From Faecalibacterium sp. HTF-F (GTDB lineage: Bacteria > Bacillota > Clostridia > Oscillospirales > Ruminococcaceae): a stretch of DNA of 64,000 nt. Positions 12,930 to 36,424 of this stretch are shown here, piece after piece. The position numbers and the translations under genes were made by a program. The notes under the pieces were generated by a model. That model had not been told where the DNA came from, made no database searches, and saw only the letters and a program-made list of their open reading frames with translations. The number at the start of each line of letters is the position of its first letter. Positions within the stretch are counted from its first letter, which is position 1. The stretch lies in contig NZ_CP094473.1 in NCBI RefSeq assembly GCF_023347535.1, positions 496,001 to 560,000 of the forward strand, given 5' to 3'.

Positions 12930-13072
12930 ACGCACGCTCCTTTGATCGTCCCACCGTGGCAAAGTCGGGCGAGAAAATCAAAGTTCCAATTTTTATCAGG
13001 CGCAAGGGCGCGGAAGTTTTCCACCCTGCACTTGCGGCTGGTGACTTATTGATGGCTTACAGGTGTCTGCTG

Positions 13073-14038
13073 TTATGCGGTCTTTTCTTCTTCAAGGGCT
13101 TCTGCAAGAGCCTTTTCCAGATAGGTTTCGATTTCAGTCAGGTAGTTAGCAGGTCGCTGCATTGCGAAGCGGAGAACCTTCTGCTTTTCCGGGTCAGTGA
13201 AATAGCTGGGATTGTTTTTGAGCGTTTTCTTCCATGAGTTTTTCATCATTTCGGTCGCACGGCTCAAAGATTTGTAAACCTTCATAAACTCGTCCGGTAC
13301 ATGATAGCACCGAAATTCTTCTGTTTGTGGTGTGGGCATGGGAACGGGTTCCGCTTTTTCAGGTTCAAATTCTGCGCTGGCAGATTCCAACACTTCCAAT
13401 GCCTCTGGATGCAGGATTTGAGCAAGGACATCTGAACGATGCTCGACACTTGCCTGCACAAGCTTGGACATTTCTTCGTTGGTGAACTTCACTTCGCCGG
13501 AAAAGACTTTCTGCTTGATGCCGGGAGAGAGATTATCTGCGATGTCGATGCCTTGTGTATAGTGGCTGGCACGAAGAACGGAGGCACGGCTGACACCGTT
13601 TTCCTCTGCGATCCGGTCGCAGGTTTTCTTTCCGGAGTGGTGGTTATCACCGTGATCACCACCACTTTTCTTTGCTAAAGTGTACTGATTGCCCCGAAAG
13701 ATTTTTGCAGCTTTCTTCTCGGCTTCGTACTGCTTCCCCAGCAGGTAACGCTTTTGTTCGGGGGAAAGATTGCGCCGCCCCAGCTGATTCTTGCAGATCC
13801 AAGCGAGGGCTTCCTCACGGTTCGCAAAGCGGAGCGGCATGGTAGAAAAGCAGATTTCGGGGTGCTTCTGAAGAATTGCATAACGGTTGTGACCATCAAC
13901 AAGGGTGTTGTTCCAAACAATCAAAGGAGAGAGCAGCTTGCCCTCTTTCAGGATATTTTCTTCAAGCTGCTTAAATTCATCATCGGTCAGAGGAGGAATC
14001 TGGGACTGAAACTCCGGGTCGATTTTCAGATTGATCAT
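13073..14038 (-). CDS. ParB/Srx-like nucleotide-binding domain protein
   Basis: A 321-residue protein. N-terminal ParB-like core: DDEFKQLEENILKEGKLLSP, then VDGHNRYAI (the GHxR nucleotide-binding box) and LAWICKNQLGRRNLSP. A helix-turn-helix-like segment follows (TCDRIAEENGVSRASVLRA). The C-terminal third is acidic and unlike ParB. Such proteins occur beside relaxases on mobilizable elements, where they may act in stability, transfer control or DNA binding. The ATG at 14038 follows AAAGGAGTGTGCGT; an upstream GTG overlaps the ribosome site. It lies 12 bases after the relaxase stop, in one operon. No ParA is present, so ordinary partitioning is unlikely. Confidence 0.75.
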   Translation of the reverse strand: MINLKIDPEFQSQIPPLTDDEFKQLEENILKEGKLLSPLIVWNNTLVDGHNRYAILQKHPEICFSTMPLRFANREEALAWICKNQLGRRNLSPEQKRYLLGKQYEAEKKAAKIFRGNQYTLAKKSGGDHGDNHHSGKKTCDRIAEENGVSRASVLRASHYTQGIDIADNLSPGIKQKVFSGEVKFTNEEMSKLVQASVEHRSDVLAQILHPEALEVLESASAEFEPEKAEPVPMPTPQTEEFRCYHVPDEFMKVYKSLSRATEMMKNSWKKTLKNNPSYFTDPEKQKVLRFAMQRPANYLTEIETYLEKALAEALEEEKTA

Positions 14039-14050
14039 ACGCACACTCCT

Positions 14051-15586
14051 TTATCTCTCCTGCTGCGTCTGTTCTTCCTCCCGGAAAAAGGACGCAACAT
14101 TCTGTTTTACGGTTTTCAGTTTGAGCAGTTCTTCCTTGGCTTCCTTGTACTGCTCGTAGAACTTCGCCTTTTCGGATGCCAGCTGCGCATACTCGGCTTC
14201 CAGCTTTTTCGGGCTGGGCAGTTTTGTGATGTTGTTTGCCTTGAAATAGGCTGCTGCCGCCCGGTATGCTGTCAGCTCTGCACGATGCTGTTCCTCAAAG
14301 GCTGCGGGTCGCTTGGCAGTATTGAACTGCTGTACGATACCCTTGGTGCTGGTATAGGCTGCGACATGATAGCGCAGCTCTTTGTTGGCCTTCATGCGAC
14401 CTTCGAGGTCTTTCACCACCGCCAGTGAATCGTGATACTTGGTTTCCAGTTCGGCGATGCGCTGGTTCAAGGCCGCCTCATCGGTCAAGCCCTTTTCTTC
14501 TAAGAGGATCAAGGTCTGTGCCATGGCTTTGAGGTTGTGCTTCTTCGCCCAACGCTCGTAGCCGATACCCTTGCCCTGCTTCAACTTCGCCTGAATATCG
14601 ACCAGTTTCCCAATGCGGTTAGGCTTGGGTTGGACAGCGCGTTTGCGCTCAGCATTTTCTTGTAAGGTGGCAAGCACGAGTTCTTTCTCAAACTTGTCAC
14701 CGAGATGTTTCGCCCGGATAAACTTGGTTCTGCCAGAAGGCAAGTAGCTGAGCTGCCCACGGCTTTCCTTGACGGTGATGCCGTACTGCTGCATGAGCTT
14801 GTCCGAGAAATCTTCAAAGCTCGTTGCATTGTTTAGCACATCCGAAATCTGTTTCCGCAGGGTATCTTTTACGGTTTCAAACTTCTTCTGCTTGGGCGGC
14901 TGTCCGGCTGCGGTGAGGGCTGCGTTCTCGCGGTCAAGTTTCATCTGACCGCGCCTACGCGCCCAATACTCGGCTTCGCTCACGCGCTCTTTCGAGCCGT
15001 TGATCAGGTCGATCTGGTACAGTCCTGCACCCTCGCACAGCTCCATGACCTCGACACGGAGGTATCGCATGGTCTGGGCTGTGCTGGAATGCTTCATACC
15101 CTCGCGCCAGTCACGGGGCTTCTGCATATAAGGCTTGCGTTCCACTTCTCGTGTTCGGATGCTGCCGATCACGATGTGGACATGGATGTTTCCCGAATGG
15201 TTGTGTCCATCCGGGTGAGTGCAGACGATGGCAGGATGACCGGGAAAGTTTTCTTCGCAGAATTTCAGGCCAAGGGCCTGTGCCTTTTCCATGGTCAAGC
15301 CGTTGTCGGCTGCATCGCGTGGGTCAAAGCTGATGATATACTGGTGGCTTTTGATATCACCATGCTGGGTGTTCTTGCCATACTTGCGGTTTGCCAGCAG
15401 ACAGGCCGTTGCAAACGAAAAATCGCCGCACTCAAGGGTGTCGAGCAGGTATGAATCCCGCAGCTTCGGCTTGCTCTGTTCATCCAGGAGTTGCTTTCCA
15501 GTGAACGCGTCGTGCTGGTAAACGAGGTACGCTTCGATGGCGGTGTAGTCCGAGTTTTTAGAGGCGATATGCTTGAGCGTTGCCAT
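14051..15586 (-). CDS. MobA/VirD2-type relaxase
   Basis: A 511-residue protein. The nicking domain is N-terminal: the region around MATLKHIASKNSDYTA carries the candidate tyrosine, and the metal-binding His motif is HPDGHNHSGNIHVHIVIGS near residues 124-142 (H-x-H pair in HVH). The C-terminal half is a long charged helical region (residues about 330-511), probably coiled coil. It would nick oriT, stay bound to the 5' end and lead the strand into a recipient through a helper element's channel. The ATG at 15586 is favoured over a GTG nine bases earlier. It overlaps the end of mobC by 29 bases, so the two are translationally coupled. Confidence 0.9.
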   Translation of the reverse strand: MATLKHIASKNSDYTAIEAYLVYQHDAFTGKQLLDEQSKPKLRDSYLLDTLECGDFSFATACLLANRKYGKNTQHGDIKSHQYIISFDPRDAADNGLTMEKAQALGLKFCEENFPGHPAIVCTHPDGHNHSGNIHVHIVIGSIRTREVERKPYMQKPRDWREGMKHSSTAQTMRYLRVEVMELCEGAGLYQIDLINGSKERVSEAEYWARRRGQMKLDRENAALTAAGQPPKQKKFETVKDTLRKQISDVLNNATSFEDFSDKLMQQYGITVKESRGQLSYLPSGRTKFIRAKHLGDKFEKELVLATLQENAERKRAVQPKPNRIGKLVDIQAKLKQGKGIGYERWAKKHNLKAMAQTLILLEEKGLTDEAALNQRIAELETKYHDSLAVVKDLEGRMKANKELRYHVAAYTSTKGIVQQFNTAKRPAAFEEQHRAELTAYRAAAAYFKANNITKLPSPKKLEAEYAQLASEKAKFYEQYKEAKEELLKLKTVKQNVASFFREEEQTQQER

Positions 15587-15992
15587 ACAGTTCACCCAGA
15601 ACTTTCTCGGCGTTGAGCCGAAATGCGGTCAGGTCTGCAAGTTCGTCAAGGAGTTTCGCCCGGATCTGCTCGATGTCTGCACCGCCGGAATTGAAGTGCC
15701 TTGCAAGCTGATTGAGGTTGCCGCCCACCTTGCTGCACTGGGCAAGCAAGGTGGAAACAGCGGTCAGGGTTTCTTCGCCGCCGCCTGCAACGATGACTGT
15801 TTTCTCGATCTTGACGTTGTGGATGGCACGGCGGATAAAAGTGGAGAGGGAGAGATTCAGGAGTTTGCAAGTGAGTTCCAGTGACGCTTTTTCCTCCGCT
15901 GTCACACGGAACTTGATGACGCGCGTTTTGTTGTTCGGCGTGTCGTGGCGCTGGGAATTGCTAGGGGTCAGTTGAACATTCGTTTTGGTCAT
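15558..15992 (-). CDS. MobC-type mobilization accessory protein
   Basis: A 144-residue protein with a ribbon-helix-helix-like start (KTRVIKFRVTAEEKASLEL, LSLSTFIRRAIHNV) and the MobC signature VSTLLAQCSKVGGNLNQLARHFN. Such proteins bind oriT and help the relaxase open the DNA. AGGAGG lies four bases before the ATG. It is the first gene of the leftward operon and faces the hairpin-rich region at 16056-16146, the expected location of oriT. Confidence 0.88.
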   Translation of the reverse strand: MTKTNVQLTPSNSQRHDTPNNKTRVIKFRVTAEEKASLELTCKLLNLSLSTFIRRAIHNVKIEKTVIVAGGGEETLTAVSTLLAQCSKVGGNLNQLARHFNSGGADIEQIRAKLLDELADLTAFRLNAEKVLGELYGNAQAYRL

Positions 15993-16057
15993 TGTACCTC
16001 CTGTCTGTTCGATAACTCCTCGGTGAAGTTATGTAAGCACGACACGCCGTTCCATTT

Positions 16058-16146
16058 GTGCCGTTAGGCACGAATGATGAGCAGGGTTTGGGGCAGGCAC
16101 GCCCCAACAAGATCACTTCGGAAATGCAGACGCATTGAAGAAGTGA
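16058..16146. other. Candidate oriT of the mobilizable element
   Basis: Three hairpins follow each other just upstream of mobC: GTGCC/GGCAC (16058-16071), TTGGGGC/GCCCCAA with loop AGGCAC (16088-16107), and TCACTTC/GAAGTGA with inner ATGC/GCAT (16113-16146). Clustered inverted repeats beside mobC are the usual form of an origin of transfer. The nick site was not identified. Confidence 0.5.
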
Positions 16147-16163
16147 AGTCCCGATGGAGCACA

Positions 16164-16858
16164 AGATTTTCAAGAATTAAAAATTTGTGGCCACGGGACG
16201 GTTCTTGCCCTCTACCGCTGCGCTCAAAACGCTTCATCAACAAATGTTTCCGAATTGTTAAGGCGCAAAAATAAGTAGAGAGTTCCGCTGCTCGTGTATG
16301 TTGATCACCGTTTGCTCCGAACGAAGTTCCTGCCCCTGTTTGTGCAGCGGCGTTGACGGAAAGTCGGTATCACGTCCGGTCGGCTCATGAAATTTTCAAG
16401 GTGCAGCTCCCGTAAAAGAAAAATACCGCCCACGCAGCGCAGCGATGATTTTGTCGGGTGAATCGGCGGCAAAATGAATCGGGTGTGTTGCGGGGCGGTA
16501 AGTTCTTTCGTGGACTTTTCCTCACGGAAGTGGTGGGTCTCACGGTGATAACCAACCACTTTTGCAGAAGATTTGCAATCAATCTACAAGCTCAGTGGGA
16601 TTTTTGATAGAGAATATCATGGTTCGTAGGGTACGTCAAGATGATTCCGAAGAAATTGAAGAAATTATTTATGAATGGAGACAATAGTAAGACTTCTATT
16701 ATGAATATGATACACTTTACATCATGAAAGAATTTAAGCTGCACAAAGATGATTCAAGCGGATGTGCAATATGCACAATAAGTTTTCTATAGCAAAATAC
16801 AGATGTGGTCATTCGGCTCTTTTACCAGACAACTTTTTTTTGAAAATAAAAAAATTTG
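16164..16858. other. Long intergenic stretch without a supported gene
   Basis: Only short frames occur, including two overlapping minus-strand frames of 65 and 84 codons with low-complexity, Arg/Pro-rich products and no ribosome site, and a 22-codon plus frame from 16619 (MVRRVRQDDSEEIEEIIYEW) that may be a gene remnant. The stretch separates the mobilization block from the cargo operon and becomes AT-rich towards the tct promoter. I see no RNA gene or riboswitch in it. Confidence 0.5.
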
Positions 16859-16897
16859 TTGACTTGAAATTGCTTGAAATGTTATCTTGTTGGTAAC
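16859..16897 (+). promoter_or_regulatory. Promoter and operator candidate of the tct-sulfatase operon
   Basis: TTGACT (16859-16864), 17-base spacer, TTATCT (16882-16887). An imperfect palindrome GTTATC-N5-GGTAAC (16881-16897) covers the -10 box. It is a plausible site for the GntR/LacI-type regulator encoded in the same cluster. Confidence 0.6.
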
Positions 16898-16956
16898 AAA
16901 AGCACGGTGAAGTGCTTGCTACCACACGAAAAGGCAAAACAAAAAAGGAGAGTAAA

Positions 16957-17925
16957 ATGATGAAAAAGCGTATTGCGGCGTTGGTCACCGCCGGTGTCCT
17001 TGCTTTGTCGATGCTTACCGGCTGCGGAAGCAAACAGGAGAGCTGGAAAGTTACCTGCCCGTGGGCACCGTCTGGTGTAGCGGCGATGGTCAGCCAAAAG
17101 GCTGCTGCCAAGTCCCCTGATTATTCTGATAATAAAATCACACTGGTTGCCGAAGCCGTCAAGGGCGATGCTGCTACTGTCAACACTTGGGTGTCCAGTA
17201 CTAAGGCAAATGATAAGGAACTGGTCTTCGCCGGTGAGGGTCTGTTCGCCATTACCGAGACTCTGGATCCGGCCAAGCTGCAGTTCAGCTACGATGATTT
17301 CGAGTTCGTGGAGAACTTGTACTCCTCCGTCTTCGTCCTGTCCGCTGATTCTTCACTGAACCTCAAGAATCTGGACGATCTGGAGGCCTATGTCAAGGCA
17401 GGCAACCCCGTATCCGTGGCCGTTAACGGCGCTACCGGCTCCGAGGCTTTCCTGGCAGCGGCTCTGTTCGGCTCTATGGGTGCCGGCGACCAGCTGAAAC
17501 TGACTCCGTACCAGTCCGCTGCGGAGGCTGCACAGGCTGTAGCTAAGGGTGAAACGAACTTCGCGGTTTCTCACCAGTCTCAGATTCTTGAGACCTACCA
17601 GCAGGGCGGCGTTGATGTGGTTTGCGCATTCGATGACAAGGCTATCGAAAACGGCCCCTTCGCAGGCGTTGAGGGCGTTGGCTCCAAGGGCTACCCCTAC
17701 TTCCGCAACCGCTGCTTCGTGATGGCACGCAAGGGTACCGATGCTGCAAAGGTTGCAGAGCTGAAAGAGCTGTACGATAAGATCCTTGCCGATCAGGAAA
17801 TGGTCGAGTGGCTGAACGATACCATGCTGCTGGAAGTTGATACGATGAGCGAAGATGACGTCAAAGCTCATATTGAGAACGTCAAGAGCATCGTCGAGCA
17901 GTATAAGGACATCGTGGCAGGCTGA
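16957..17925 (+). CDS. tctC: TctC-family solute-binding lipoprotein
   Basis: A 322-residue lipoprotein. Signal peptide MMKKRIAALVTAGVLALS ends in lipobox LTGC, so the mature protein is anchored outside the cytoplasmic membrane. The body resembles extracytoplasmic receptors of tripartite tricarboxylate transporters: VTCPWAPSGVAAMVSQ at the start, ANDKELVFAG, NGATGSEAFLAAALFG and a terminal helix with VEQYKDIVAG. It should capture an organic anion and hand it to TctAB. AAGGAG precedes the first of two ATGs. It is the first gene of a cargo operon tctC-tctB-tctA-sulfatase; a hairpin behind it probably lowers transcription of the downstream genes. Ligand unknown; a sulfated organic anion is inferred from the neighbouring sulfatase. 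Confidence 0.85.
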   Translation: MMKKRIAALVTAGVLALSMLTGCGSKQESWKVTCPWAPSGVAAMVSQKAAAKSPDYSDNKITLVAEAVKGDAATVNTWVSSTKANDKELVFAGEGLFAITETLDPAKLQFSYDDFEFVENLYSSVFVLSADSSLNLKNLDDLEAYVKAGNPVSVAVNGATGSEAFLAAALFGSMGAGDQLKLTPYQSAAEAAQAVAKGETNFAVSHQSQILETYQQGGVDVVCAFDDKAIENGPFAGVEGVGSKGYPYFRNRCFVMARKGTDAAKVAELKELYDKILADQEMVEWLNDTMLLEVDTMSEDDVKAHIENVKSIVEQYKDIVAG

Positions 17926-17955
17926 TAAAAAGCCCTCATAGCGACAAAAAGCTGA

Positions 17956-17993
17956 AGCAGGGGGAACGGGGACATCCCCTTCTCCCTGCTTTT
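17956..17993 (+). terminator. Partial terminator between tctC and tctB
   Basis: AGCAGGG-GGAA-GGGGA pairs with TCCCCTTCTCCCTGCT (one bulged base), followed by TTTA. Placement after the binding-protein gene suggests attenuation that keeps binding protein in excess over the membrane subunits. Confidence 0.7.
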
Positions 17994-18018
17994 ATGTTTC
18001 CAAAAGGAGTTGAAACAA

Positions 18019-18534
18019 GTGAAAAATCTGATAGAACGTGCCGAAGCAAAACTGGATGAATGGGGCGCAAAGCTCGAACAGAAGAACATCGAGTACCCGG
18101 TAGACCTGATTTGCGGCATTCTGTTTCTGGTCATTGGCATCGTGCTGCTGCTCATCATGCCGCAGCAGGTGCAGATCTCGGAAAAAGACGTTGTGAATGG
18201 CCGCGCTTTCCCGACGATGCTGATTTGGCTCATGCTGGCCATGAGCGCCCTTCTGGTGGGCCGCGAGGCATACAACATGGTGATGCACCGCCCGACCAAA
18301 ACTAAAACGCTGAATCTTTTGGTGGAAACAAAAGCACTCGTCATCGTCCTCATTCTGGTGGTCACTTATCTGCTGGCAGAGGTCACGGATCTGTTTGTTG
18401 TGGGCGCTGTATTCTGCGCACTGGCATTTCTGGTCTTTTTCCGCTGCAAGAAACCCCTTTACTATGCCATCACAGTTTCAATGGCTGTGTTGATTTGGGT
18501 CGTATTCCACTTTGTGCTGAATGTTAGTTTCTGA
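18019..18534 (+). CDS. tctB: TctB-family small membrane subunit
   Basis: A 171-residue protein: a charged amphipathic N-terminus (NLIERAEAKLDEWGAKLEQK) followed by four membrane helices, the usual TctB arrangement (VDLICGILFLVIGIVLLLI, GRAFPTMLIWLMLAMSALL, VIVLILVVTYLLAEV and the last two hydrophobic stretches). The GRAFP segment between helices 1 and 2 matches the FP motif common in this family. GTG at 18019 is chosen because AAGGAG lies nine bases upstream; the TTG at 18010 abuts it. It works with TctA in the membrane. Confidence 0.82.
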   Translation: MKNLIERAEAKLDEWGAKLEQKNIEYPVDLICGILFLVIGIVLLLIMPQQVQISEKDVVNGRAFPTMLIWLMLAMSALLVGREAYNMVMHRPTKTKTLNLLVETKALVIVLILVVTYLLAEVTDLFVVGAVFCALAFLVFFRCKKPLYYAITVSMAVLIWVVFHFVLNVSF

Positions 18535-18545
18535 GGAGGCAGAAT

Positions 18546-20054
18546 ATGGGTTTGTTTGACTTTATCGGCCCGGCCTCCGGGCTGCTTTTCACCCTCGAAA
18601 ATATCATCTGGATAAACCTCGGCGTCTTTATTGGCTGCGTGTTCGCGGCCATCCCGGGATTAAGTGTTATCCTCTGCATCATCCTATTCCTGCCTGTCAC
18701 TTATACCATGCGTGCGATTCCCGGCATGATGTTCCTGTTGGGCATTTACTGCGCAGGTGGCTATGGTGGCTCGGTATCGGCTATCCTTATCAACACGCCG
18801 GGTACGCCCCACGCGGCGGCTACTATGCTGGACGGCTATCCGCTGTCCAAAATGGGCCGCACTAAGGCGGCGTTGAAAATTGCACTTTATGCATCTACCT
18901 TTGGCGGTATCTTCTCTGCGTTGGTGCTGCTCTTCCTCGGCCCTCAGGTCGCAAAAATTTCGGCACAGCTCGGCACGGCGGAGTACTTTATGGTCTGCCT
19001 GTTCGGCATGACGATTATTGCAGGCGTTTCTGGTAAGAGCCTTGTCAAGGGCATCATCGCCGCCTGCCTTGGTTTGCTTATTTCCTGTGTGGGCGCAGAC
19101 CCCATGACCAGCTATGACCGCTTTACATTTGGTATTCCCCGTCTGTATCTGGGTCTTGACCTTGCCGTTACCCTCATCGGTTTGTTCGCACTGGTGGAAA
19201 TCATTGGCAAGGCAGAGCTGAAGCGGAATGAGTTGAACCTTCACGCCGGAAAAATCGGCAATGATGACGGCAAAATCACAAAAGATGAATACAAGCGGAT
19301 GTTCCGACCAGTGCTGATGGGTTCTATCATCGGTTCCTGTGTTGGTATCGTACCTGGCACGGGTGCGTCGGAGGCCTCGTGGTTCTCCTACAACACTGCG
19401 AAGAACCTGTCCAAGCATCCCGAGGAATTCGGCCACGGTTCTGTGGAGGGCGTTGCGGCTGCTGAGTCTGCCAACAATGCCGTCTGTGGCGCGACCCTGA
19501 TTCCCTTGCTGACGCTGGGCATCCCCGGCGACGGCTGCGTGGCCATCATGTTGTCGGCCCTGATGATAAATGGCCTGAACCCCGGTCTCTCGCTGTTCAC
19601 CACCGACGGCGCTATCATGTATGCCATCATGCTGGGCCTTATCCTCGTGAACATCTTCATGTTCCTGCAGGGCAAATACCTGACTAGCCTGTTTGCAAAG
19701 GTCGTCTCCATCCCTCAGCAGATCTTGACCCCCATCATCGTGATTTTCTGTTTCGCCGGTGCTTACTCGGTGAACAGCAGCTATTTTGATTTGAGCGTTG
19801 CGCTGGTGTTCGGCGTGATGGCGTGGTTCATGCGCAAGCTGGAGCTGCCCGCTGTCCCTGTGCTGTTGGGTATGGTGCTGGGCAACATGACGGAAACCAA
19901 CTTCCGCCGTGCTTTGCTCATCTCGGATGGAAGCCCCAGAATTTTCGTCAGTAGTGTGTACTGCTGGATCTTCATTGCGCTGATCGTGGTGGTCATTCTC
20001 GGCATTCTGCGCGGCAAGATGAAGGAAGCAAAGAACACCAAAGCAGAACAGTAA
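18546..20054 (+). CDS. tctA: TctA-family large membrane subunit of a tripartite transporter
   Basis: A 502-residue protein with about 12 helices and family landmarks. The first half has FIGCVFAAIPGLS and GGYGGSVSAILINTPGTPHAAATMLDGYP split over two stretches; the second half repeats the pattern with IVPGTGASEASWFSYNTAK and GATLIPLLTLGIPGDG. These Gly/Pro-rich loops are the transport core of the TTT family (DUF112/TctA). It imports an organic anion by proton or sodium symport with TctC and TctB. The sulfatase gene starts 14 bases after its stop, which strongly links the imported solute to the sulfatase substrate. Confidence 0.93.
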   Translation: MGLFDFIGPASGLLFTLENIIWINLGVFIGCVFAAIPGLSVILCIILFLPVTYTMRAIPGMMFLLGIYCAGGYGGSVSAILINTPGTPHAAATMLDGYPLSKMGRTKAALKIALYASTFGGIFSALVLLFLGPQVAKISAQLGTAEYFMVCLFGMTIIAGVSGKSLVKGIIAACLGLLISCVGADPMTSYDRFTFGIPRLYLGLDLAVTLIGLFALVEIIGKAELKRNELNLHAGKIGNDDGKITKDEYKRMFRPVLMGSIIGSCVGIVPGTGASEASWFSYNTAKNLSKHPEEFGHGSVEGVAAAESANNAVCGATLIPLLTLGIPGDGCVAIMLSALMINGLNPGLSLFTTDGAIMYAIMLGLILVNIFMFLQGKYLTSLFAKVVSIPQQILTPIIVIFCFAGAYSVNSSYFDLSVALVFGVMAWFMRKLELPAVPVLLGMVLGNMTETNFRRALLISDGSPRIFVSSVYCWIFIALIVVVILGILRGKMKEAKNTKAEQ

Positions 20055-20068
20055 AGGAAGGTAAAACC

Positions 20069-21424
20069 ATGGCATATAATATCATTTTCTATTTCAGTGA
20101 CCAGCAGCGCTGGGACACCTGCGGCTGCTTCGGCCAGCCACTGAATATCACGCCTAATCTGGACAAGCTGGCGGCAGAGGGTGTGAAGTTTGACAATGCC
20201 TTTTCGCCTCAGCCGGTGTGCGGCCCCTGCCGTGCTCTGTTCCAGACCGGCAAATATCCCACCGAGACCGGTTGCTTCCGCAATAATCTGATGCTGCCCT
20301 CCAACATCAAGACGCTGGGCGAGTACATGGAAAAGGATGCCGGCTACGAGACGGCCTACATTGGCAAGTGGCATCTGGCTTCGGACGGTGAGCTGGAGAA
20401 AAAGCCCACCGTTGACCACACCATCACCGCTGTTCCGCTGGAGCTGCGCGGTGGCTATACCGGTTACTGGCGTGCTGCGGATGTGCTGGAGTTCACCTCC
20501 CACGGCTACGATGGCTATGTGTTTGATGAGAACAACAACCGCATCGATTTCAAGGGCTACCGTGCCGACTGCATTAACCAGTTTGCGCTGGACTATCTTG
20601 ACCAGTATGCCGGCGAAAAGCCCTTCTTCATGACCGTGTCGCAGATCGAGCCGCACCATCAGAACGACCATAATCACTACGAAGGCCCCAACGGTTCCAA
20701 GCAGCGATTCGCAGATTTTGTTCTGCCGGAAGATCTGAAGGCTCTGGGTGGAAACGCAGCGGAAGAGTACCCGGATTATCTGGGCCAGTGTGCCAGCCTT
20801 GATGAAAACCTTGGTAAGCTGGTGTCAAAGCTGAAAGAAAAAGGCCTGTATGATAATACAGTTATCCTCTATGCTTCCGACCATGGCTCTCACTTCAAGA
20901 CCCGCAACCGTGATGCGCACCTGAACGGCTATGATGATTACAAGCGCTCCTGCCATGACGGTTGCCTGCATGTGCCGCTGGTCATCTGTGGCGGCCCGTT
21001 CAAGGGTGGCAAGGAGATCACCGACCTGGTCAGCACCGAAAGCATTCCCAAAACTCTGCTGGCTCTGGCAGGCGTGGATGTCGGTGATAAGATGATCGGT
21101 GAAAATCTGCTTGACGTTGTGGAAAAGAAAAACCATAATAGAGTCAATGAGGTCTATGCACAGATTTCGGAAAGCCGTTGCGGACGCTGCATCCGTACTG
21201 CAGATTATATGTATTCTGTCTATGCACCCGGCGTCAACGGCGGCGAGGCTGCGGCATCCGATGTTTATGCAGACGACTTCCTTTACGATATGCAGAAAGA
21301 CCCGTGGCAGCTGAACAATGTGGTCGCGGATCCTGCATATGCTGCGGTCAAGGCGGAACTTCGTGAACGTCTGCTGAACTGGATTCAGCACGCGGAAGGT
21401 AGCCGCCCCACTATCACCGACTGA
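20069..21424 (+). CDS. Cytoplasmic Cys-type (formylglycine) sulfatase
   Basis: A 451-residue alkaline-phosphatase-superfamily enzyme. The metal-binding start is YFSDQQRWDTCGC; the sulfatase signature C-x-P-x-R reads CGPCR at residues 51-55 within SPQPVCGPCRALFQTGKYP. Cys51 would be oxidised to formylglycine. Further landmarks are GKWHL (residues 99-103), EPHH, and SDHGSH as the second metal site. There is no signal peptide, so it acts in the cytoplasm on an imported sulfate ester. It lies directly behind tctCBA and near an anaerobic maturase of the kind needed for a Cys-type enzyme. Specificity (aryl, alkyl, choline or sugar sulfate, or a phosphonate monoester) cannot be read from sequence. 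Confidence 0.9.
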   Translation: MAYNIIFYFSDQQRWDTCGCFGQPLNITPNLDKLAAEGVKFDNAFSPQPVCGPCRALFQTGKYPTETGCFRNNLMLPSNIKTLGEYMEKDAGYETAYIGKWHLASDGELEKKPTVDHTITAVPLELRGGYTGYWRAADVLEFTSHGYDGYVFDENNNRIDFKGYRADCINQFALDYLDQYAGEKPFFMTVSQIEPHHQNDHNHYEGPNGSKQRFADFVLPEDLKALGGNAAEEYPDYLGQCASLDENLGKLVSKLKEKGLYDNTVILYASDHGSHFKTRNRDAHLNGYDDYKRSCHDGCLHVPLVICGGPFKGGKEITDLVSTESIPKTLLALAGVDVGDKMIGENLLDVVEKKNHNRVNEVYAQISESRCGRCIRTADYMYSVYAPGVNGGEAAASDVYADDFLYDMQKDPWQLNNVVADPAYAAVKAELRERLLNWIQHAEGSRPTITD

Positions 21425-21440
21425 AAAGGAGCGCTTGCCC

Positions 21441-22559
21441 ATGCTCTCGGCTGTTGAGAAAAAATCCGATCAGGTTTATCGCTGGCTTCTGGCTTATATT
21501 GACGAAAACAAATTTTCCGGGAACCAGCGTTTGCCTTCGGAAAATGCGCTCTGCCGGAAGCTGGGTGTCAGCCGAGAAACGATACGAGTGGCCATCGACC
21601 AGTTGGTAGCAGAAGGACTCGTGTACAAGCTCAAGGGAAGTGGGACTTATTTCCACCGAGAAAAAGTAATGACGCGGGATTTGAACACAGATGATGCCCT
21701 TTATAAAATCGGCCTTGTCCTGCAGGGACAGGATACAAGTGCCAATTCGGGATTAATCGAAGGGGTTCGCAGTGTTCTGACGCAGGAGCAGGTTGACCTC
21801 CATGTATTTCTGACCGATAACAAATTCTGCAACGAACGCCGCTGTCTGGAGACTGTGGTACATCAGAATTTTCACGGTTTCATCGTGGATGGTGTCAAAT
21901 CGAGCATCCTCAGCCCAAATCTTGACTGCTACAAGGAGCTTTACCGACGTAAGATCCCGGTGATATTCTACAACAACTTCTATCGGAACTTGCGCTGCCC
22001 CCGCGTAACGATCAATGACATCGAATGTGCCCATCAGCTGATAGGACGCCTGATGGATGCCGGACACAGCCACATTGCAGGCATCTTCGTGTACGACAAC
22101 TACCAGAGCGTAGAAAAGTTTCAAGGCATGGCGGAAGCGATGCGAAATCGTGGTTTGGAACTGAACGATGATTACATCAAGTGGTGTATTTCGGATGAAG
22201 CCCACAACGAAAGCTATGTCCGTTCCATTGAAAGATTTCTGAAGAGCATCCCTAAATGCACCGCTATCGTCTGCTGCAACTACACCATCTATCGGCTGGT
22301 CATGAAAACCCTGCAGAAAATGGGGAAGACTGTACCCGAAGATTATTCGCTGGTCTGTTTTGATTATTCCGAAGAAACTTATCGGCAGGAGGATGTTACC
22401 TGCTCCGTGGAGCAAGGCTTCGAGATGGGACGTCAGCTTGCGCTGCGGCTTATGGAGATGATTTCCACCGGCGAATGCGATGACCGGAACTACACTTATG
22501 TCATGAAGCCCATCCTCTACGATGGCCATTCCATCCGGAAGATCAAAAAGGTAAAATAA
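21441..22559 (+). CDS. GntR-type/LacI-type hybrid transcriptional regulator (AraR-like)
   Basis: A 372-residue protein. The N-terminal GntR winged helix shows RLPSENALCRKLGVSRETIR and LVYKLKGSGTYFHRE. From about residue 90 a LacI/periplasmic-binding-like effector domain follows, with YKIGLVLQG, GFIVDGVKS, IPVIFYNNFY, INDIECAHQLIGRLMDAGH and the late VCFDYSEETYRQEDVT. This layout is that of AraR. Start ATG 21441 has AAAGGAG at good distance. It lies 16 bases after the sulfatase stop and is probably in the same operon. It most likely senses the imported sulfate ester or its desulfated product and controls the palindrome near 16889. Confidence 0.9.
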   Translation: MLSAVEKKSDQVYRWLLAYIDENKFSGNQRLPSENALCRKLGVSRETIRVAIDQLVAEGLVYKLKGSGTYFHREKVMTRDLNTDDALYKIGLVLQGQDTSANSGLIEGVRSVLTQEQVDLHVFLTDNKFCNERRCLETVVHQNFHGFIVDGVKSSILSPNLDCYKELYRRKIPVIFYNNFYRNLRCPRVTINDIECAHQLIGRLMDAGHSHIAGIFVYDNYQSVEKFQGMAEAMRNRGLELNDDYIKWCISDEAHNESYVRSIERFLKSIPKCTAIVCCNYTIYRLVMKTLQKMGKTVPEDYSLVCFDYSEETYRQEDVTCSVEQGFEMGRQLALRLMEMISTGECDDRNYTYVMKPILYDGHSIRKIKKVK

Positions 22560-22560
22560 A

Positions 22561-22600
22561 GATTCTCCCGGAGGCAATACTGCTCTCCGGGAGAATCTCT
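22561..22600. terminator. Bidirectional terminator between regulator and maturase
   Basis: GATTCTCCCGGAG pairs perfectly with CTCCGGGAGAATC; T-rich on both sides, serving two convergent genes. Confidence 0.9.
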
Positions 22601-23710
22601 TTATCGGTTTTGTTGTGCCAGAAAATGTGCAGCAGTATGCAGGCGCGGAAGCACATAGGCAAAGAACTGCTTATACGCTGCGCAAAAGCGGTTGCTTCCA
22701 GAGGCATCCCAATCTCGCTTGCATCCGCCCCGGCAGAGCAGCTGATAAGCACATGCTGCGCATTCCGCCGGGCGTTTTCGGCCCTGTGCCAGAAATGTCT
22801 GGCTTGTGGGAGAATCAAGCGCATCTTCAACGGTACAGTGGCTCAGATTTCCCAGCTTCCACTCATCCAGAACATAAAAGTCACAGGGATAAAGGCTTCC
22901 GTCACCTTCTACGGTAAGATAATGTCCACAGGAACCGGAGGAAGCGCAGGAGGTAGGCGGCATTCCCAGCAGGATACGCAGATAGTCCTCAAAATTGCGA
23001 ACGCTGATATAATTGCCTCGTTGCAGCTGCTGATACCAAGTATCAAAGACGCCGCACAGAAAACGACCATAAAGTTCCGGCGTTAGAGAATATGCCTGCC
23101 CTCCAATCGTATCAAGTGGGTCAAGACATGGGATGAATTGCAGATTGTGCTGTCCCAACTCGCAGAGGCTTTTGAAGGCTCGCTGCGGCTTTCTGGTCAG
23201 CTGTCCGGTCACAACACAGAGCAGATTCGTTTCGACCCTGTAGGCATCCAGCAGCGCAAGCGCATGAGTTACTTTATCCCATGTGCCCTGCCCAGCTGCG
23301 TCCAGCCGATAGAGATCATGGTTCTCCTGTGTGCCGTCCAGAGAGAGGCCTACGAGGAAAGAGTTGGCTTTGAAAAAGGAAGCCCACTCTTCATCCAGAC
23401 AAATGCCATTGGTTTGGATGCTGTGGAACACAGAGATATTGCGCTGCATGGAACGCTCCGTTTCCAGAAAGAACCGGAAGAAATCCAACCCGGCAAGAGT
23501 CGGTTCGCCGCCCTGAAACAGAAAATGGACGCTGCCGCCTTCCTCTGTGGCTGCAAAAGCCTTTTCAACCAGTTCTCCTGCCATTTCATGGGAAAGCAGT
23601 CCCATATTTTTGCAGGCTCGGCTGTTGGAAACATCGTCATAAAAGCAGTACCGGCAACGCAGATTGCACAGGCTGGACGCTGGCTTGACGAGAAATGTAT
23701 TATGTTTCAT
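22601..23710 (-). CDS. Anaerobic sulfatase-maturating radical SAM enzyme
   Basis: A 369-residue radical SAM/SPASM protein. The SAM cluster motif is CNLRCRYC near the N-terminus, followed by FLFQGGEPTLAG and SIQTNGICLDEEW. The C-terminal SPASM Cys set is visible in CASSGSCGHYLTVEGDGS, YPCDFYV, CAACAYQLLCRGGCKRD and FCAAYKQFF, expected to hold two auxiliary iron-sulfur clusters. This is the anSME layout. It oxidises the active-site Cys or Ser of sulfatases to formylglycine without oxygen. It faces the sulfatase-regulator operon and has its own promoter. GGAGGG precedes the ATG at 23710. Its presence in the same cargo as a Cys-type sulfatase makes the pairing near certain. Confidence 0.92.
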   Translation of the reverse strand: MKHNTFLVKPASSLCNLRCRYCFYDDVSNSRACKNMGLLSHEMAGELVEKAFAATEEGGSVHFLFQGGEPTLAGLDFFRFFLETERSMQRNISVFHSIQTNGICLDEEWASFFKANSFLVGLSLDGTQENHDLYRLDAAGQGTWDKVTHALALLDAYRVETNLLCVVTGQLTRKPQRAFKSLCELGQHNLQFIPCLDPLDTIGGQAYSLTPELYGRFLCGVFDTWYQQLQRGNYISVRNFEDYLRILLGMPPTSCASSGSCGHYLTVEGDGSLYPCDFYVLDEWKLGNLSHCTVEDALDSPTSQTFLAQGRKRPAECAACAYQLLCRGGCKRDWDASGSNRFCAAYKQFFAYVLPRLHTAAHFLAQQNR

Positions 23711-23745
23711 AGAGATTCCCTCCGTGCTTCGCAGTTCTTAAAACA

Positions 23746-23774
23746 AGGATACCGGAAAATACGGGCTTTCGCAA
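23746..23774 (-). promoter_or_regulatory. Promoter candidate of the maturase gene
   Basis: Minus strand TTGCGA (23774-23769), 17-base spacer, TATCCT (23751-23746), 36 bases before the start codon. Confidence 0.5.
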
Positions 23775-23857
23775 GCAGTAATAGTTAAAAGCTGTTTGAA
23801 ATAGTAAGAAAACGAATATAGTTGTCCGAAAATCAAAAAAAGGAGAAGAAAACTTGT

Positions 23858-24445
23858 ATGGATGAAAATAAAACATACGGTACACGGTCAGCACGGCTTT
23901 GGAAGCTGTTTTTGAGTACGCTGTACATTAGCAGCTTTACCTTCGGCGGCGGCTTTGTCATCGTGACCTTTATGAAGAAAAAATTTGTAGATGAGCTACA
24001 CTGGATCGATGAACAGGAAATGCTGGATATGACAGCGTTGGCGCAGTCCTCTCCGGGCGCAATCGCGGTCAATGCTGCAATTCTGGTAGGTTGGCAGGTA
24101 GAAGGCTTGATTGGAATGATCGTGGCAGTGTTGGGCACCATCATCCCACCTATGGTCATTCTTTCAATCATTTCTGTGTTCTACAATGCTTTTGCCACCA
24201 ATCGCTATATCGCGTTGTTACTCAAGGGAATGCAGGCTGGTGTGGCGGCGGTCATTCTGGATGTTGTATTTGACCTCGGCGGCAAGGTGCTGAAGATCCG
24301 CTCATGGGTGTATATTGCCCTGATGGTCGCAGCGTTTGTCGCAAATACGGTGTTTGATGTCAATGTGGTGGTGGTCATCCTTGCCGCTGCAGTATTCGGC
24401 GTGGTGCTGGCTCTGGTCCAGTGGAAAAAAGGTGGTGCAAAATGA
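23858..24445 (+). CDS. Short-chain CHR (chromate/sulfate) transporter, subunit 1
   Basis: A 195-residue membrane protein equal to one half of a ChrA protein. Signature segments are SFTFGGGFVIVTFMKKKFVDE, split around FGGG, then WIDEQEMLDMTALAQSSPG and IAVNAAILVGWQVEG, all typical of the Chromate_transp family, then four further helices. Short-chain CHR proteins are encoded as pairs that probably form a heterodimer. The family carries chromate and sulfate, so here it may export the sulfate set free by the cytoplasmic sulfatase (inference). AAAGGAG lies 12 bases before the ATG. Its end overlaps the start of the partner gene (ATGA). Confidence 0.85.
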   Translation: MDENKTYGTRSARLWKLFLSTLYISSFTFGGGFVIVTFMKKKFVDELHWIDEQEMLDMTALAQSSPGAIAVNAAILVGWQVEGLIGMIVAVLGTIIPPMVILSIISVFYNAFATNRYIALLLKGMQAGVAAVILDVVFDLGGKVLKIRSWVYIALMVAAFVANTVFDVNVVVVILAAAVFGVVLALVQWKKGGAK

Positions 24446-25005
24446 TCTACTTACAGCTTTTTCTCAGCTTTTTGCAGGTGGGTATGTTCAGCGTAGGCGG
24501 CGGCTATGCGGCCATGCCGCTGATCCAGAGCCAAGTGGTGGAACAACATGGCTGGCTGACGATGCAGGAGTTTACTGACCTCATCACGATTGCAGAAATG
24601 ACCCCTGGTCCCATTGCGGTCAACTCGGCAACTTTTGTTGGTTTGCGTATCGCGCAGGTACCCGGAGCCATCATTGCAACACTAGGTTGCATTACACCGG
24701 CGCTGTTCTTTGTTTCACTTCTATCCTACATCTATCGTAAATACAAGGATATTTCTCTGCTGCAAAGTGTTCTGGCATGCCTGCGTCCGGTCATTGTAGC
24801 GCTTATCTTTGGTGCAGGTCTTTCTATACTGTCTATGGTGGTGTTCGGAGAGAGTGCAAAGGCGCTCGCCAACGTAGACTGGATCGGCATCGGCAGTTTT
24901 GCATCGGCATTTTTTGTCCTACGGAAGCTCAAGTGGAATCCCATCCTGACCATGTGCCTGTGCGGCGTGGCCGGGCTTGGACTTCACATTTTGCTCGGAA
25001 TATAA
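24442..25005 (+). CDS. Short-chain CHR (chromate/sulfate) transporter, subunit 2
   Basis: A 187-residue membrane protein homologous to the preceding one. It shows FLQVGMFSVGGGYAAMPLIQ, WLTMQEFTDLITIAEMTPGP and IAVNSATFVGLRIAQVPG, the second CHR half with the conserved PGP. Translational overlap with subunit 1 implies equal production and a shared complex. No terminator was seen before the recombinase, but 144 bases and a separate promoter lie between. The direction of transport and the ion remain to be shown. Confidence 0.85.
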   Translation: MIYLQLFLSFLQVGMFSVGGGYAAMPLIQSQVVEQHGWLTMQEFTDLITIAEMTPGPIAVNSATFVGLRIAQVPGAIIATLGCITPALFFVSLLSYIYRKYKDISLLQSVLACLRPVIVALIFGAGLSILSMVVFGESAKALANVDWIGIGSFASAFFVLRKLKWNPILTMCLCGVAGLGLHILLGI

Positions 25006-25052
25006 TCTTAAGACAATTTGTCTGTTGGAATCATGAAAATAAATCATTGGGC

Positions 25053-25081
25053 TTGCAATCAGGGCAAAACTGTGGTATATA
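25053..25081 (+). promoter_or_regulatory. Promoter candidate of the serine recombinase
   Basis: TTGCAA (25053-25058), 17-base spacer, TATATA (25076-25081). The stretch 25006-25149 also contains several short inverted repeats and is a candidate region for recombinase binding. Confidence 0.5.
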
Positions 25082-25149
25082 CATTATACGAAACATTGCT
25101 TTGATGAACGTATTACCGTTCAATGATGTATAAATGGGAGGTGCCTGCC

Positions 25150-26811
25150 ATGACCGCCGTGATCTATGCTCGCTATTCATCGGATAACCAGCGCGAAGAA
25201 TCCATCGAAGGCCAGATTCGTGAATGTACGGCTTATGCTGAAAAGAATGGCATCACAGTGGTCAAGCACTATATCGACCGTGCCATCTCTGCCAAGACGG
25301 ACAACCGCCCGGAGTTTCAGCAGATGATCAAAGACAGCGACAAAAAGCTGTTTGACATCGTGCTGGTCTGGAAGCTGGACCGTTTTGCCCGGAACCGCTA
25401 CGACAGTGCCCGGTATAAGACCCAGCTGAAAAAGAATGGTGTCAAGCTTATGTCTGCCACCGAGATCATTTCGGATGGCCCGGGAGGTATCATTCTGGAA
25501 TCGGTTCTGGAAGGTTATGCCGAGTATTACTCCGCTGATCTGTCCGAAAAGGTCATTCGCGGCATGACGGAAAACGCCCTGAAAGGCAAATTTTCTGGCG
25601 GTGCTATCCCTTTCGGCTACACCATCAACGCAGACCGCCGCTTTGAAATCGACCCACTCACAGCTCCCTTTGTAGCTGAAGCTTTCCAGCGGTACAATGA
25701 CGGACAGACGATGCGGGAGATTCGGGATTGGCTCAATGAAAAGGGCATCAAGAATAAGCGCGGTGGGCCAATGACTTTCAATGTCATCCAGCACATGCTG
25801 AGCAACCGCCGATATATCGGCGAGTTGAAGTACCGGGACGTCCTGATTCCCGATGCGATTCCACCTATCGTGTCCGCAGAGCTTTTCAATGATGTACAGG
25901 AAAAGATGTTGAAAAACAAGAAAGCCCCTGCCCGTAGAAAGGCAGAGGACGACTATCTGCTCACCACCAAGTTGTTCTGCGGCTACTGTGGGGCGTTGAT
26001 GTTTGGCGAGAGTGGTACGAGCCGGACGGGTGAAGTCCACCGCTATTATAAATGTGCTACTGCCAAAAAGCACAAGGGCTGCAAGAAAAAGACTGTCCGT
26101 AAACAGTGGCTGGAAGATCTTGTGGTCAACCAGACCATGCAGCTTGTGAAAGACGATGCCGCTATGGAGTCCATCATCGCCAAGGTGATGGAACTGCAAA
26201 ATAAGGAGAATACCAACATTCCTCTCTATGAGAAACAGCTTCGTGATGCGGAATCCGGTATCCAGAATATGCTGAACGCGATACAGGCTGGTATTCTGAC
26301 CAGCTCCACCAAGGAGCGGCTGGAGCAGCTGGAAGAAACCAAGCGTGAGCTTGAAGCCCGCATTGCGGAAGAGAAGCTGGCAAAGCCCAAGGTCACGGAG
26401 GAGTTCATCCGGTTCTGGCTGCTGCGATTCCGTAAGCTGGATATGAGCCTGAAAGACCAGCGGCAGGCGCTGGTGGATACCTTCATCAATGCGATTTATC
26501 TGTACGATGATAAGGTTTTGATAACCTTCAACTATAAAGAAGGAACACAGACCGTCACCTTTGGAGAAGCGACAGAAGTTGCATCCGAGGGAAATGGTTC
26601 GGATTTGAATTGCTTTACTGCACCAAGAAAAACCAGTACACAATGTGTACTGGTTTTTCTTTTTCGGTGCGGAAGAGGACTTGAACAGCAACGACGACGA
26701 CCGCAGCCAGCGGCTGAAACAGGGAGGAGTTGTTGGGGCCGCGTTCTGATTTTTCAAAGCCCTGCCAAGGGGCTGCAGAAAAATCAGCAAACGCAACCCG
26801 TAAGGCCCTGA
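25150..26811 (+). CDS. Large serine recombinase (integrase of the element)
   Basis: N-terminal resolvase catalytic domain: VIYARYSSDNQREESIEGQ holds the nucleophilic Ser, and VWKLDRFARNRYDSA is the R-x-x-R segment. Then come the Recombinase domain (GGAIPFGYTINADRRF, TMREIRDWLNEKGIKNKRGG), a zinc ribbon (LFCGYCGALMFG and YYKCATAKKHKGC) and a coiled coil near residues 335-415. This is the TnpX/TndX-type enzyme that integrates and excises clostridial elements as a circle. The ATG at 25150 follows GGGAGG. The last ~55 codons read through a perfect terminator-like hairpin (26628-26658) into unlike DNA, so the natural stop may have been lost on integration or by mutation. Confidence 0.92.
   Translation: MTAVIYARYSSDNQREESIEGQIRECTAYAEKNGITVVKHYIDRAISAKTDNRPEFQQMIKDSDKKLFDIVLVWKLDRFARNRYDSARYKTQLKKNGVKLMSATEIISDGPGGIILESVLEGYAEYYSADLSEKVIRGMTENALKGKFSGGAIPFGYTINADRRFEIDPLTAPFVAEAFQRYNDGQTMREIRDWLNEKGIKNKRGGPMTFNVIQHMLSNRRYIGELKYRDVLIPDAIPPIVSAELFNDVQEKMLKNKKAPARRKAEDDYLLTTKLFCGYCGALMFGESGTSRTGEVHRYYKCATAKKHKGCKKKTVRKQWLEDLVVNQTMQLVKDDAAMESIIAKVMELQNKENTNIPLYEKQLRDAESGIQNMLNAIQAGILTSSTKERLEQLEETKRELEARIAEEKLAKPKVTEEFIRFWLLRFRKLDMSLKDQRQALVDTFINAIYLYDDKVLITFNYKEGTQTVTFGEATEVASEGNGSDLNCFTAPRKTSTQCVLVFLFRCGRGLEQQRRRPQPAAETGRSCWGRVLIFQSPAKGLQKNQQTQPVRP
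26628..26658 (+). terminator. Terminator-like hairpin inside the recombinase reading frame
   Basis: AAAAACCAGTACACA pairs with TGTGTACTGGTTTTT. A full terminator in frame with the recombinase suggests the functional gene ended just before it. Confidence 0.65.
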
Positions 26812-26900: not shown

Positions 26901-27047
26901 GGCTGTTGCAAAATAGCTCTTTGAAAAATTATGAACAAAACCCGGAACCTTTTCAGAGCCAAAACGGCTCAAAAAGGGTTCCGGGCTTTTATTTTTTGCA
27001 CTATCTCTTTGTGCAAGCTGCTATCGCATTTTTATTTTGCAACAGCC
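26901..27047. mobile_element. MITE-like element, 147 bp
   Basis: Perfect 14-base terminal inverted repeats GGCTGTTGCAAAAT (26901-26914) and ATTTTGCAACAGCC (27034-27047). The inside is non-coding and holds a long imperfect hairpin with CCCGGAACC/GGTTCCGGG followed by T-rich DNA. The termini resemble those of IS1182/IS6-like elements, so a transposase elsewhere could move it. No clear target duplication. It cuts off the end of the siderophore-ABC pseudogene. Confidence 0.65.
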
Positions 27048-36410: not shown

Positions 36411-36424
36411 TTACATCAACAAAT

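What the first reader, a model, noticed from the sequence alone, without database searches (positions are those of the whole stretch)
16859..25005. Mobile sulfate-ester utilisation system: TTT importer, cytoplasmic sulfatase, own maturase, own regulator and CHR efflux pair
Seen: tctC-tctB-tctA, then a signal-less Cys-type sulfatase (CGPCR), a GntR/LacI regulator, a convergent radical-SAM sulfatase maturase, then two coupled short CHR transporters, all between a relaxase block and a serine recombinase. Known: TctABC imports organic anions, anSME makes formylglycine anaerobically, CHR proteins carry sulfate/chromate. Inference: the cargo imports a sulfated organic anion intact, removes sulfate inside the cell and exports the sulfate. 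Gut sulfatases usually act outside the cytoplasm on glycans and pair with SusCD or ABC systems; a transferable all-in-one intracellular route looks undescribed.
Basis: partly seen in the sequence, partly recalled or inferred. Interest (0 to 1): 0.9.

Follow-up and report, generated by a model that had tools for sequence, protein, structure and literature searches.

The report
Mobile sulfated-nutrient uptake and desulfation cassette
A common gut bacterium carries a swappable piece of mobile DNA that appears to let it take in a sulfate-tagged nutrient, most likely a sugar, and remove the sulfate inside the cell; the exact nutrient still has to be found in the laboratory.

Summary
tctC-tctB-tctA, a cytoplasmic sulfatase, an AraR-like regulator, an anaerobic maturase (anSME) and two CHR genes fill one "cargo bay" (about 16,562-25,051) of a Faecalibacterium mobilizable element. 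The block occurs in 7 of 31 genus genomes. In four of them anSME and CHR are 98.6-99.8% identical in DNA while core gene ilvD is 90-91%: it moves horizontally. In the 80 nearest sulfatase loci in GTDB, tctA abuts the sulfatase in 53 and anSME is present in 52.

I change one step: the substrate is more likely a sulfated sugar than a generic organic anion. The regulator resembles AraR, sister loci swap the importer for a sugar ABC system with lacto-N-biose phosphorylase, and a second element on the same backbone carries a PTS, another sulfatase, anSME, CHR and GH1. Sulfate export by CHR stays unproven: CHR pairs are common here without sulfatases. Comparable transporter-sulfatase-maturase loci are published (B. 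breve, pneumococcus, acesulfame plasmids). New are the TTT importer and the swappable mobile format. No substrate was tested.

The parts
12699..16501 (-). Shared left module of the element: ParB-like ORF 13073-14044, MobA-type relaxase 14051-15595, NikA/MobC-like 15558-15992, then non-coding DNA
   Evidence: PF03432 and PF21983; ParB-like is my own label, no Pfam match; DNA shared with other elements stops at 16,501-16,562
16562..25051 (+). Cargo bay: holds exactly the eight cassette genes
   Evidence: Edges from comparison with 20 other elements and L124/L125
16825..16835 (+). CCAGACAACTT, candidate regulator site upstream of tctC
   Evidence: Half-site pattern upstream of tctC in 37 of 52 loci; on its own not above chance in the window
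16957..17925 (+). tctC, TTT solute-binding lipoprotein
18010..18534 (+). tctB, small TTT membrane subunit
   Evidence: PF07331
18546..20054 (+). tctA, large TTT membrane subunit
   Evidence: PF01970, 491 bits
20069..21424 (+). S1-type sulfatase, Cys-type formylglycine motif CGPCR, no visible signal sequence
   Evidence: PF00884; model pLDDT 83; fold of S1 sulfatases
21435..22559 (+). AraR-like GntR/LacI-type regulator
   Evidence: PF00392 and PF13377; best solved relatives AraR for both domains, 3tb6 and 4egy
22601..23710 (-). Anaerobic sulfatase-maturating radical SAM enzyme (anSME)
   Evidence: TIGR03942 over cut-off; 327 bits to the solved anSME 4k36; only match at E <= 1e-20 in this genome
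23858..24445 (+). chr1, short CHR protein
   Evidence: PF02417
24442..25005 (+). chr2, short CHR protein, ATGA overlap with chr1
   Evidence: PF02417; overlap
25123..26811 (+). Large serine recombinase, shared right module (shared DNA 25,051 to about 26,630)
   Evidence: PF00239, PF07508, PF13408; family in 25 of 31 genus genomes at E <= 1e-100; edges

Best explanation
A sulfo-nutrient scavenging cassette, cargo of an integrative mobilizable element in Faecalibacterium. Proposed steps: the lipoprotein TctC captures a small sulfated sugar, for example one freed from mucin by other gut bacteria. TctAB imports it intact. In the cytoplasm the S1 sulfatase, whose active-site Cys was turned into formylglycine by the cassette's own anSME, removes the sulfate. 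The bare sugar enters the host's own catabolism, so the cassette needs no further enzyme. The AraR-like regulator senses a sugar and controls the tct-sulfatase operon. The CHR pair (TauE/SafE in many relatives) may dispose of the sulfate. Shown: gene content, conserved order, horizontal spread, cargo-bay position, the anSME being the only one in the genome. Inferred: cytoplasmic location (no visible signal sequence), sulfated sugar as substrate, direction of transport, sulfate export, regulator site.
For: Whole block in 7 of 31 genus genomes, more alike than the core gene in four of them. tctA within 200 bp of the sulfatase in 53 of 80 GTDB loci, regulator next in 51, anSME in 52 on either side and strand. 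Sugar clues: regulator closest to AraR; GH112 lacto-N-biose phosphorylase with sugar ABC genes in 13 of 80 loci, four of them also with TctABC; GH20C in one; second element on the same backbone with PTS and GH1; host has NagA and GH112. Catalytic-type residues D11, C51, P53, R55, K100, H102, D271, H272, K292 invariant in 36 relatives (their roles are recalled). TTT can carry alginate oligosaccharides (PMC13390454, passages) and sulfolactate (PMC5812351, passages).
Against: No activity or binding data. The 6S-GlcNAc recognition triad of subfamily S1_11 is not evident, so no particular sugar is supported by residues. 27 of 80 loci have no tctA next to the sulfatase (some cut by contig ends), and several of these show no obvious sugar importer. 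Of 29 well-flanked TTT loci 14 have no CHR or TauE; 8 TTT loci have no anSME nearby. CHR pairs are common without sulfatases. The candidate regulator site was not found before exporter genes and before only 1 of 57 anSME genes.
Confidence: 0.6

Rival explanations
1. One reading: the substrate is a sulfated non-sugar organic anion (phenol, steroid, bile acid, choline sulfate or similar), imported by TTT and desulfated inside.
For: Known TTT substrates are mostly organic acids and aromatics (PMC5812351, passages); TctC's solved relatives bind terephthalate, malate and others; choline sulfatases are among the nearest 50 folds.
Against: AraR-like regulator; the same sulfatase beside sugar ABC and GH112 genes; PTS in the sister element; no enzyme for an unusual aglycone in the cassette; nearest folds mostly carbohydrate sulfatases.
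Confidence: 0.22
2. The CHR pair has nothing to do with sulfate; it is a passenger common in the genus.
For: CHR pairs in 27 of 31 genus genomes; 0 of 21 other CHR stretches examined hold a sulfatase, anSME, tctA or tctC; only 5 of 80 sulfatase loci have the CHR pair, one of them the Faecalibacterium cassette itself.
Against: CHR accompanies two unrelated sulfatase cargos on one backbone and four loci outside the cassette copies at differing positions (L046, L069, L075, L101); among 20 other elements only one CHR fragment was seen (L148).
Confidence: 0.4
3. The hydrolase is not a sulfatase in practice but a phosphonate or phosphate ester hydrolase of the same superfamily.
For: The superfamily is promiscuous (recalled); a phosphonate monoester hydrolase is among the 50 nearest folds (2vqr) and several are among the sequence matches.
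Against: CGPCR motif plus a maturase in 52 of 80 loci; best matches are sulfatases.
Confidence: 0.07
4. The cassette serves sulfur supply, not carbon supply.
For: Released sulfate could in principle be assimilated.
Against: In G000 the PAPS-reductase family PF01507 gives a single partial match (30.6 bits, positions 101-164 of 175); sulfite reductase and APS kinase were not searched. AraR-like control suggests sugar, not sulfur, sensing (inference).
Confidence: 0.05

Closest known systems
Bifidobacterium breve UCC2003 nag and sulfatase locus Bbr_0846-0853, GlcNAc-6-sulfate (PMC6045583, passages)
   Same: Transport protein, sulfatase and AtsB maturase together; strain grows on GlcNAc-6-sulfate and needs NagA for it
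   Different: Transport protein annotated as glucose/fructose transporter, not TTT; nag genes included; no mobile element, CHR or TauE in the passages read. That desulfation is intracellular there is my inference
Streptococcus pneumoniae PTS accessory island (PMC3283741, passages)
   Same: Accessory island with regulator (ROK), sugar PTS, sulfatase, sulfatase-modifying factor and a TauE-family protein; logic as in the second element here
   Different: PTS importer, no TTT or CHR; substrate not identified and sulfatase activity not detected there in the mutant tested
Acesulfame degradation clusters on plasmids (PMC10413263, PMC11500405, passages)
   Same: Mobile cluster with importer, sulfatase and TauE-like exporter proposed to remove the anion product
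   Different: Synthetic substrate; metallo-beta-lactamase-type or oxygen-matured sulfatase; amidase step; ABC importer
TTT systems for alginate oligosaccharides (PMC13390454) and sulfolactate, SlcHFG (PMC5812351); passages
   Same: TctABC architecture; acidic sugars and a sulfonate as substrates; GntR regulator beside the alginate system
   Different: No sulfatase partner in the passages read; a sulfated sugar would be a new TTT substrate
Bacteroides mucin sulfatases, e.g. S1_11 for 6S-GlcNAc (PMC10154612, passages and one section)
   Same: S1 fold; 5g2v (BT4656, S1_11) is the best solved sequence match
   Different: Surface or periplasmic there, in PULs; S1_11 recognition triad not evident here

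Membership tests
S1 formylglycine sulfatase | PF00884 domain and C-x-P-x-R motif | tested here: met
   150.5 bits, cut-off 25; CGPCR; C51, P53 and R55 invariant in 36 relatives
S1 formylglycine sulfatase | Sulfatase activity with formylglycine | not testable with these tools
   Needs expression and assay
SulfAtlas subfamily S1_11 (6S-GlcNAc) | His (O3) and Asp/Arg (O4) recognition triad (PMC10154612) | tested here: inconclusive
   In the alignment to BT4656 Arg aligns with R293, the Asp position with Tyr291, and no conserved His is seen; which BT4656 residues form the triad is recalled
Anaerobic sulfatase-maturating enzyme | Radical SAM plus SPASM, equivalog score | tested here: met
   TIGR03942 365.6 bits, cut-off 349.45; PF04055 and PF13186. 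PRK13758 model 375.8 bits, under its cut-off of 441
Tripartite tricarboxylate transporter (TTT) | TctC, TctB and TctA together | tested here: met
   PF03401, PF07331 and PF01970 all over cut-off; TctC fold
Tripartite tricarboxylate transporter (TTT) | Uptake of the proposed sulfated substrate | not testable with these tools
   Needs a binding or uptake assay
CHR (chromate/sulfate) transporter, short pair | Two adjacent PF02417 proteins | tested here: met
   153 and 165 bits; NCBIfam chromate efflux models all under their cut-offs
CHR (chromate/sulfate) transporter, short pair | Sulfate transport and its direction | not testable with these tools
   Context only, mixed
AraR-like regulator | GntR DNA-binding domain fused to LacI-type effector domain | tested here: met
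   PF00392 and PF13377; 3tb6 and 4egy best for the two domains
Integrative mobilizable element | Relaxase, mobilization protein and site-specific recombinase | tested here: met
   PF03432, PF21983; PF00239, PF07508, PF13408
Integrative mobilizable element | Defined att sites, excision and transfer, no own conjugation machinery | not tested
   att sites not resolved; not every ORF of the element was scanned; excision needs an experiment

The most novel reading that the evidence does not exclude
Faecalibacterium shares a family of mobilizable elements with one cargo bay into which complete sulfo-sugar modules are loaded and exchanged: one with a TTT importer (the window), one with a PTS and GH1 (L124, L125), each with its own cytoplasmic sulfatase, maturase, regulator and CHR pair. 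TctABC would be the first TTT importer of a sulfated sugar, and these bacteria would gain or lose access to sulfated sugars by horizontal transfer.
Probability: 0.42. Interest if true: 0.72.

Novelty: new variant of a known kind. Interest (0 to 1): 0.6.

Why it matters
Studied gut sulfatases act mainly at the surface or in the periplasm of Bacteroides (PMC10154612, passages). If Faecalibacterium and its relatives import sulfated sugars whole and desulfate them inside, they are a separate sink for sulfosugars that others release, and the trait can move between species. The sulfatase's 90% cluster holds 5,630 member sequences, so it is not rare. The cassette is small and complete, and it is present in the public genome of F. 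prausnitzii ATCC 27768, so the question can be tested directly.

Tried and rejected
Shared regulon. I looked for the tctC-upstream motif before the other genes. It was found before 37 of 52 tctC, 1 of 57 anSME, 0 of 20 TauE, 0 of 12 CHR loci, 1 of 88 sulfatase, 0 of 14 GH112 and 0 of 13 SBP genes, so a shared regulon is not shown. Palindrome counts upstream of tctC gave nothing consistent.

Dedicated CHR: rejected as a general statement. TauE/SafE is also a common family: it was found in 14 of 14 control genomes and twice elsewhere in G000.

Importer against exporter type. In the well-flanked loci 15 of 29 TTT and 0 of 17 non-TTT loci have CHR or TauE (Fisher p 2e-4), but the test on independent pairs of the tree was not significant. 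The earlier counts (26/14 against 0/19, and 25/15 against 0/18 for anSME) are biased, because 'none' required long flanks and 'present' did not. The distance correlations between the parts (Pearson 0.77-0.88, Mantel p 0.001) are also expected under plain vertical descent.

Limits. Tree: quick method, 84 rows, 28 of 81 inner branches starred; L089 was dropped because my ORF caller did not return its sulfatase. The caller also missed the L031 sulfatase, so the negative controls were repeated on six-frame translations, with positive controls 6 of 6. The 21 CHR stretches were chosen by me from about 33 pairs outside the two sulfo-cassettes (one search lists 85 single matches). Cargo labels of the 20 other elements are from reading sequence starts, not from family searches.

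Literature: the searches are open-access only, 20 titles listed at most for searches for 103. One paper search was left unused.
Full report
WHERE IT IS. The window lies in a one-contig genome of 2,776,287 bases (G000:C1:496001-560000).

WHAT IS THERE. Searches confirm tctC, tctB, tctA, a 451-aa sulfatase with CGPCR, a GntR/LacI-type regulator, a minus-strand anaerobic sulfatase maturase (TIGR03942 over its cut-off) and two CHR genes that overlap by ATGA. The sulfatase starts MAYNIIFYF, as does the consensus of 36 relatives, and shows no signal sequence by eye. The maturase is the only one in the genome at E <= 1e-20. The only other PF00884 protein is 658 aa with the domain at 274-580 and no C-x-P/A-x-R motif, so it looks LtaS-like (label recalled).

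IT MOVES. The block tctC to chr2 plus a recombinase of the same family is in 7 of 31 genus genomes: G000, G010, G012, G023, G026, G027, G030. Against the window copy, anSME is 99.1-99.6%, chr1 98.6-99.5% and chr2 99.1-99.8% identical in DNA in the other six. Core gene ilvD is 97% in G010 and G030 but 90-91% in G012, G023, G026 and G027; an FtsX-type gene is 95-96% in G010 and G030, 76-80% in G023, G026 and G027, and not found in G012. So the cassette has passed between species. The copies are mosaic: tctB-tctA are about 88% in G026 and G010, and the sulfatase is 87-89% in the other four, where its protein is still 97-98% identical. That indicates purifying selection (inference). The recombinase gene is only 83-86%, so cargo and recombinase have partly separate histories.

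CARGO BAY. The recombinase family is in 25 of 31 genus genomes. I fetched 20 other elements that end in a copy of about 80-99% identity, some cut by contig ends. Their cargo differs: glycan ABC and hydrolase-like sets, two-component and ABC sets, LytTR-like regulators, transporters and others, labelled from sequence starts. Where the shared left module was in the stretch it stops at 16,501-16,507 in 9 of the 20 and at 16,562 in L124 and L125. The shared right module begins at 25,051-25,073 in 16 of 20 and at 25,144-25,150 in the four most distant ones. The gap between holds the eight genes and nothing else. None of the 20 holds a sulfatase, anSME, tctA or tctC detectable with the profile and proteins used.

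SECOND SULFO-CARGO. In G006 and G023 the same recombinase family (85-88%) closes an element with GH1, a CHR pair, a different sulfatase (CMPAR motif), a sugar PTS EIIBC, an RpiR regulator and its own anSME (L124, L125). In G023 the relaxase, MobC-like and ParB-like genes of this backbone stand beside it, and G023 also has the window's cassette elsewhere. The two sulfatases share about 22% identity. That two unrelated sulfatases each come with importer, maturase and CHR on one backbone is the strongest sign that these parts work together, and the PTS points to a sugar. G020 has another PTS-sulfatase-RpiR-anSME set (L126).

OUTSIDE THE GENUS. tctA ends within 200 bp of the sulfatase in 53 of 80 and the regulator follows in 51; anSME is in 52, downstream in 45 and upstream in 7, on both strands. 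Many loci are cut by contig ends; in 46 well-flanked ones tctA is in 29, anSME in 30, TauE in 12, CHR in 3. A TauE/SafE protein (PF01925, two members scanned) is in 20 loci, all with TctABC, 19 of them within 600 bp of anSME or tctC. The CHR pair related to the window's is in 5 of 80: L042 (the G027 cassette itself), L046, L069, L075, L101, at differing positions; L053 has a distant pair (about 36%). On a quick tree of 84 sulfatases the importer state changes at least 11 times and the exporter state at least 13 times; only 28 of 81 branches are starred, so these counts are rough.

SUBSTRATE. In 13 of 80 loci a GH112 lacto-N-biose phosphorylase stands near with a sugar-type ABC importer; in 4 of them TctABC is there as well. 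The L114 phosphorylase scores 786 bits to the solved lacto-N-biose phosphorylase, its ABC binding protein is closest to a chitin-oligosaccharide binding protein, and L112 adds a GH20C-type hexosaminidase. The regulator is closest to AraR in both domains. The nearest folds of the sulfatase model are mostly carbohydrate sulfatases, with choline sulfatases and a phosphonate monoester hydrolase also in the 50. The cassette has no further catabolic gene, which fits a common sugar; the host has NagA and GH112. Against a firm assignment: the 6S-GlcNAc triad of S1_11 (PMC10154612) is not evident, other importers or none stand beside some relatives, and no residue-level test for another sugar was found.

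IMPORT AND EXPORT. TctC has the fold of TTT binding proteins. A TTT takes up alginate oligosaccharides, with Kd values down to the nanomolar range (PMC13390454), and another sulfolactate (PMC5812351), so a sulfated sugar is within reach. Export of sulfate is the weakest step. For it: two transporter families recur at this place, and CHR is in both sulfo-cargos. Against it: CHR pairs are in 27 of 31 genus genomes, 0 of 21 other CHR stretches hold a sulfatase, anSME, tctA or tctC, and 14 of 29 well-flanked TTT loci have neither exporter. The host's own use of sulfate is not settled: PF01507 gives one partial match.

VERDICT. The substrate reading moves from 'organic anion' to 'probably a sulfated sugar', sulfate export stays a hypothesis, and the novelty narrows: comparable loci are published for B. 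breve, pneumococcus and, for a synthetic compound, acesulfame plasmids. The new variant is TTT import and a mobile element family with an exchangeable sulfo-sugar bay.

Noticed in passing
L124 (G006:C1:482000-501900) about 5.9-15.4 kb and L125 (G023:C1:113500-133400): Second sulfo-cargo on the same element family: GH1, CHR pair, another sulfatase, sugar PTS, RpiR regulator, own anSME, recombinase 85-88%.
   Followed up: partly
L126 (G020:C18:76000-95900) 5.6-11.2 kb: PTS EIIC, sulfatase, RpiR-like regulator and anSME together in a third arrangement; no recombinase of this family was seen in the stretch.
   Followed up: partly
L135 (G000:C1:2241000-2257000): The same genome has a second element with a 99% identical recombinase and a different cargo, apparently two-component and ABC genes.
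   Followed up: partly
L135-L154: Twenty elements of one recombinase family with very different cargos between the same two modules; looks like a general cargo-exchange platform in the genus.
   Followed up: partly
window 16957-25005 against L031-L036: Cassette copies are mosaic: tctB-tctA and the sulfatase each come in two alleles 12-13% apart in DNA, while the rest is mostly 95-99.8% identical (regulator 90% in L035).
   Followed up: partly
L148 (G012:C1:614000-630000) 14357-14618: A chr2 fragment (88% in protein) lies just behind the recombinase of an element that carries no sulfatase.
   Followed up: no
window 9891-9977: tRNA-Leu (cag) close to the left end of the element; DNA from inside or next to the tRNA onwards recurs at other elements. 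A possible insertion site.
   Followed up: no
L113: A MAG labelled Anaerobiospirillum (a proteobacterium) carries a diverged TctABC-sulfatase-anSME cluster; transfer or a mis-binned contig.
   Followed up: no
L111, L114, L115: A second, distant sulfatase (26-33% identity segments) lies in the same locus as the relative of the window's sulfatase, with GH112 and sugar ABC genes in L111 and L114.
   Followed up: no
window 27001-27432 (-): Short ORF that reads like the end of an ABC ATPase, just right of the element; perhaps a gene remnant.
   Followed up: no
window 36419-36676 (+) and 53628-53894 (-): Two T-box leaders over the gathering score.
   Followed up: no
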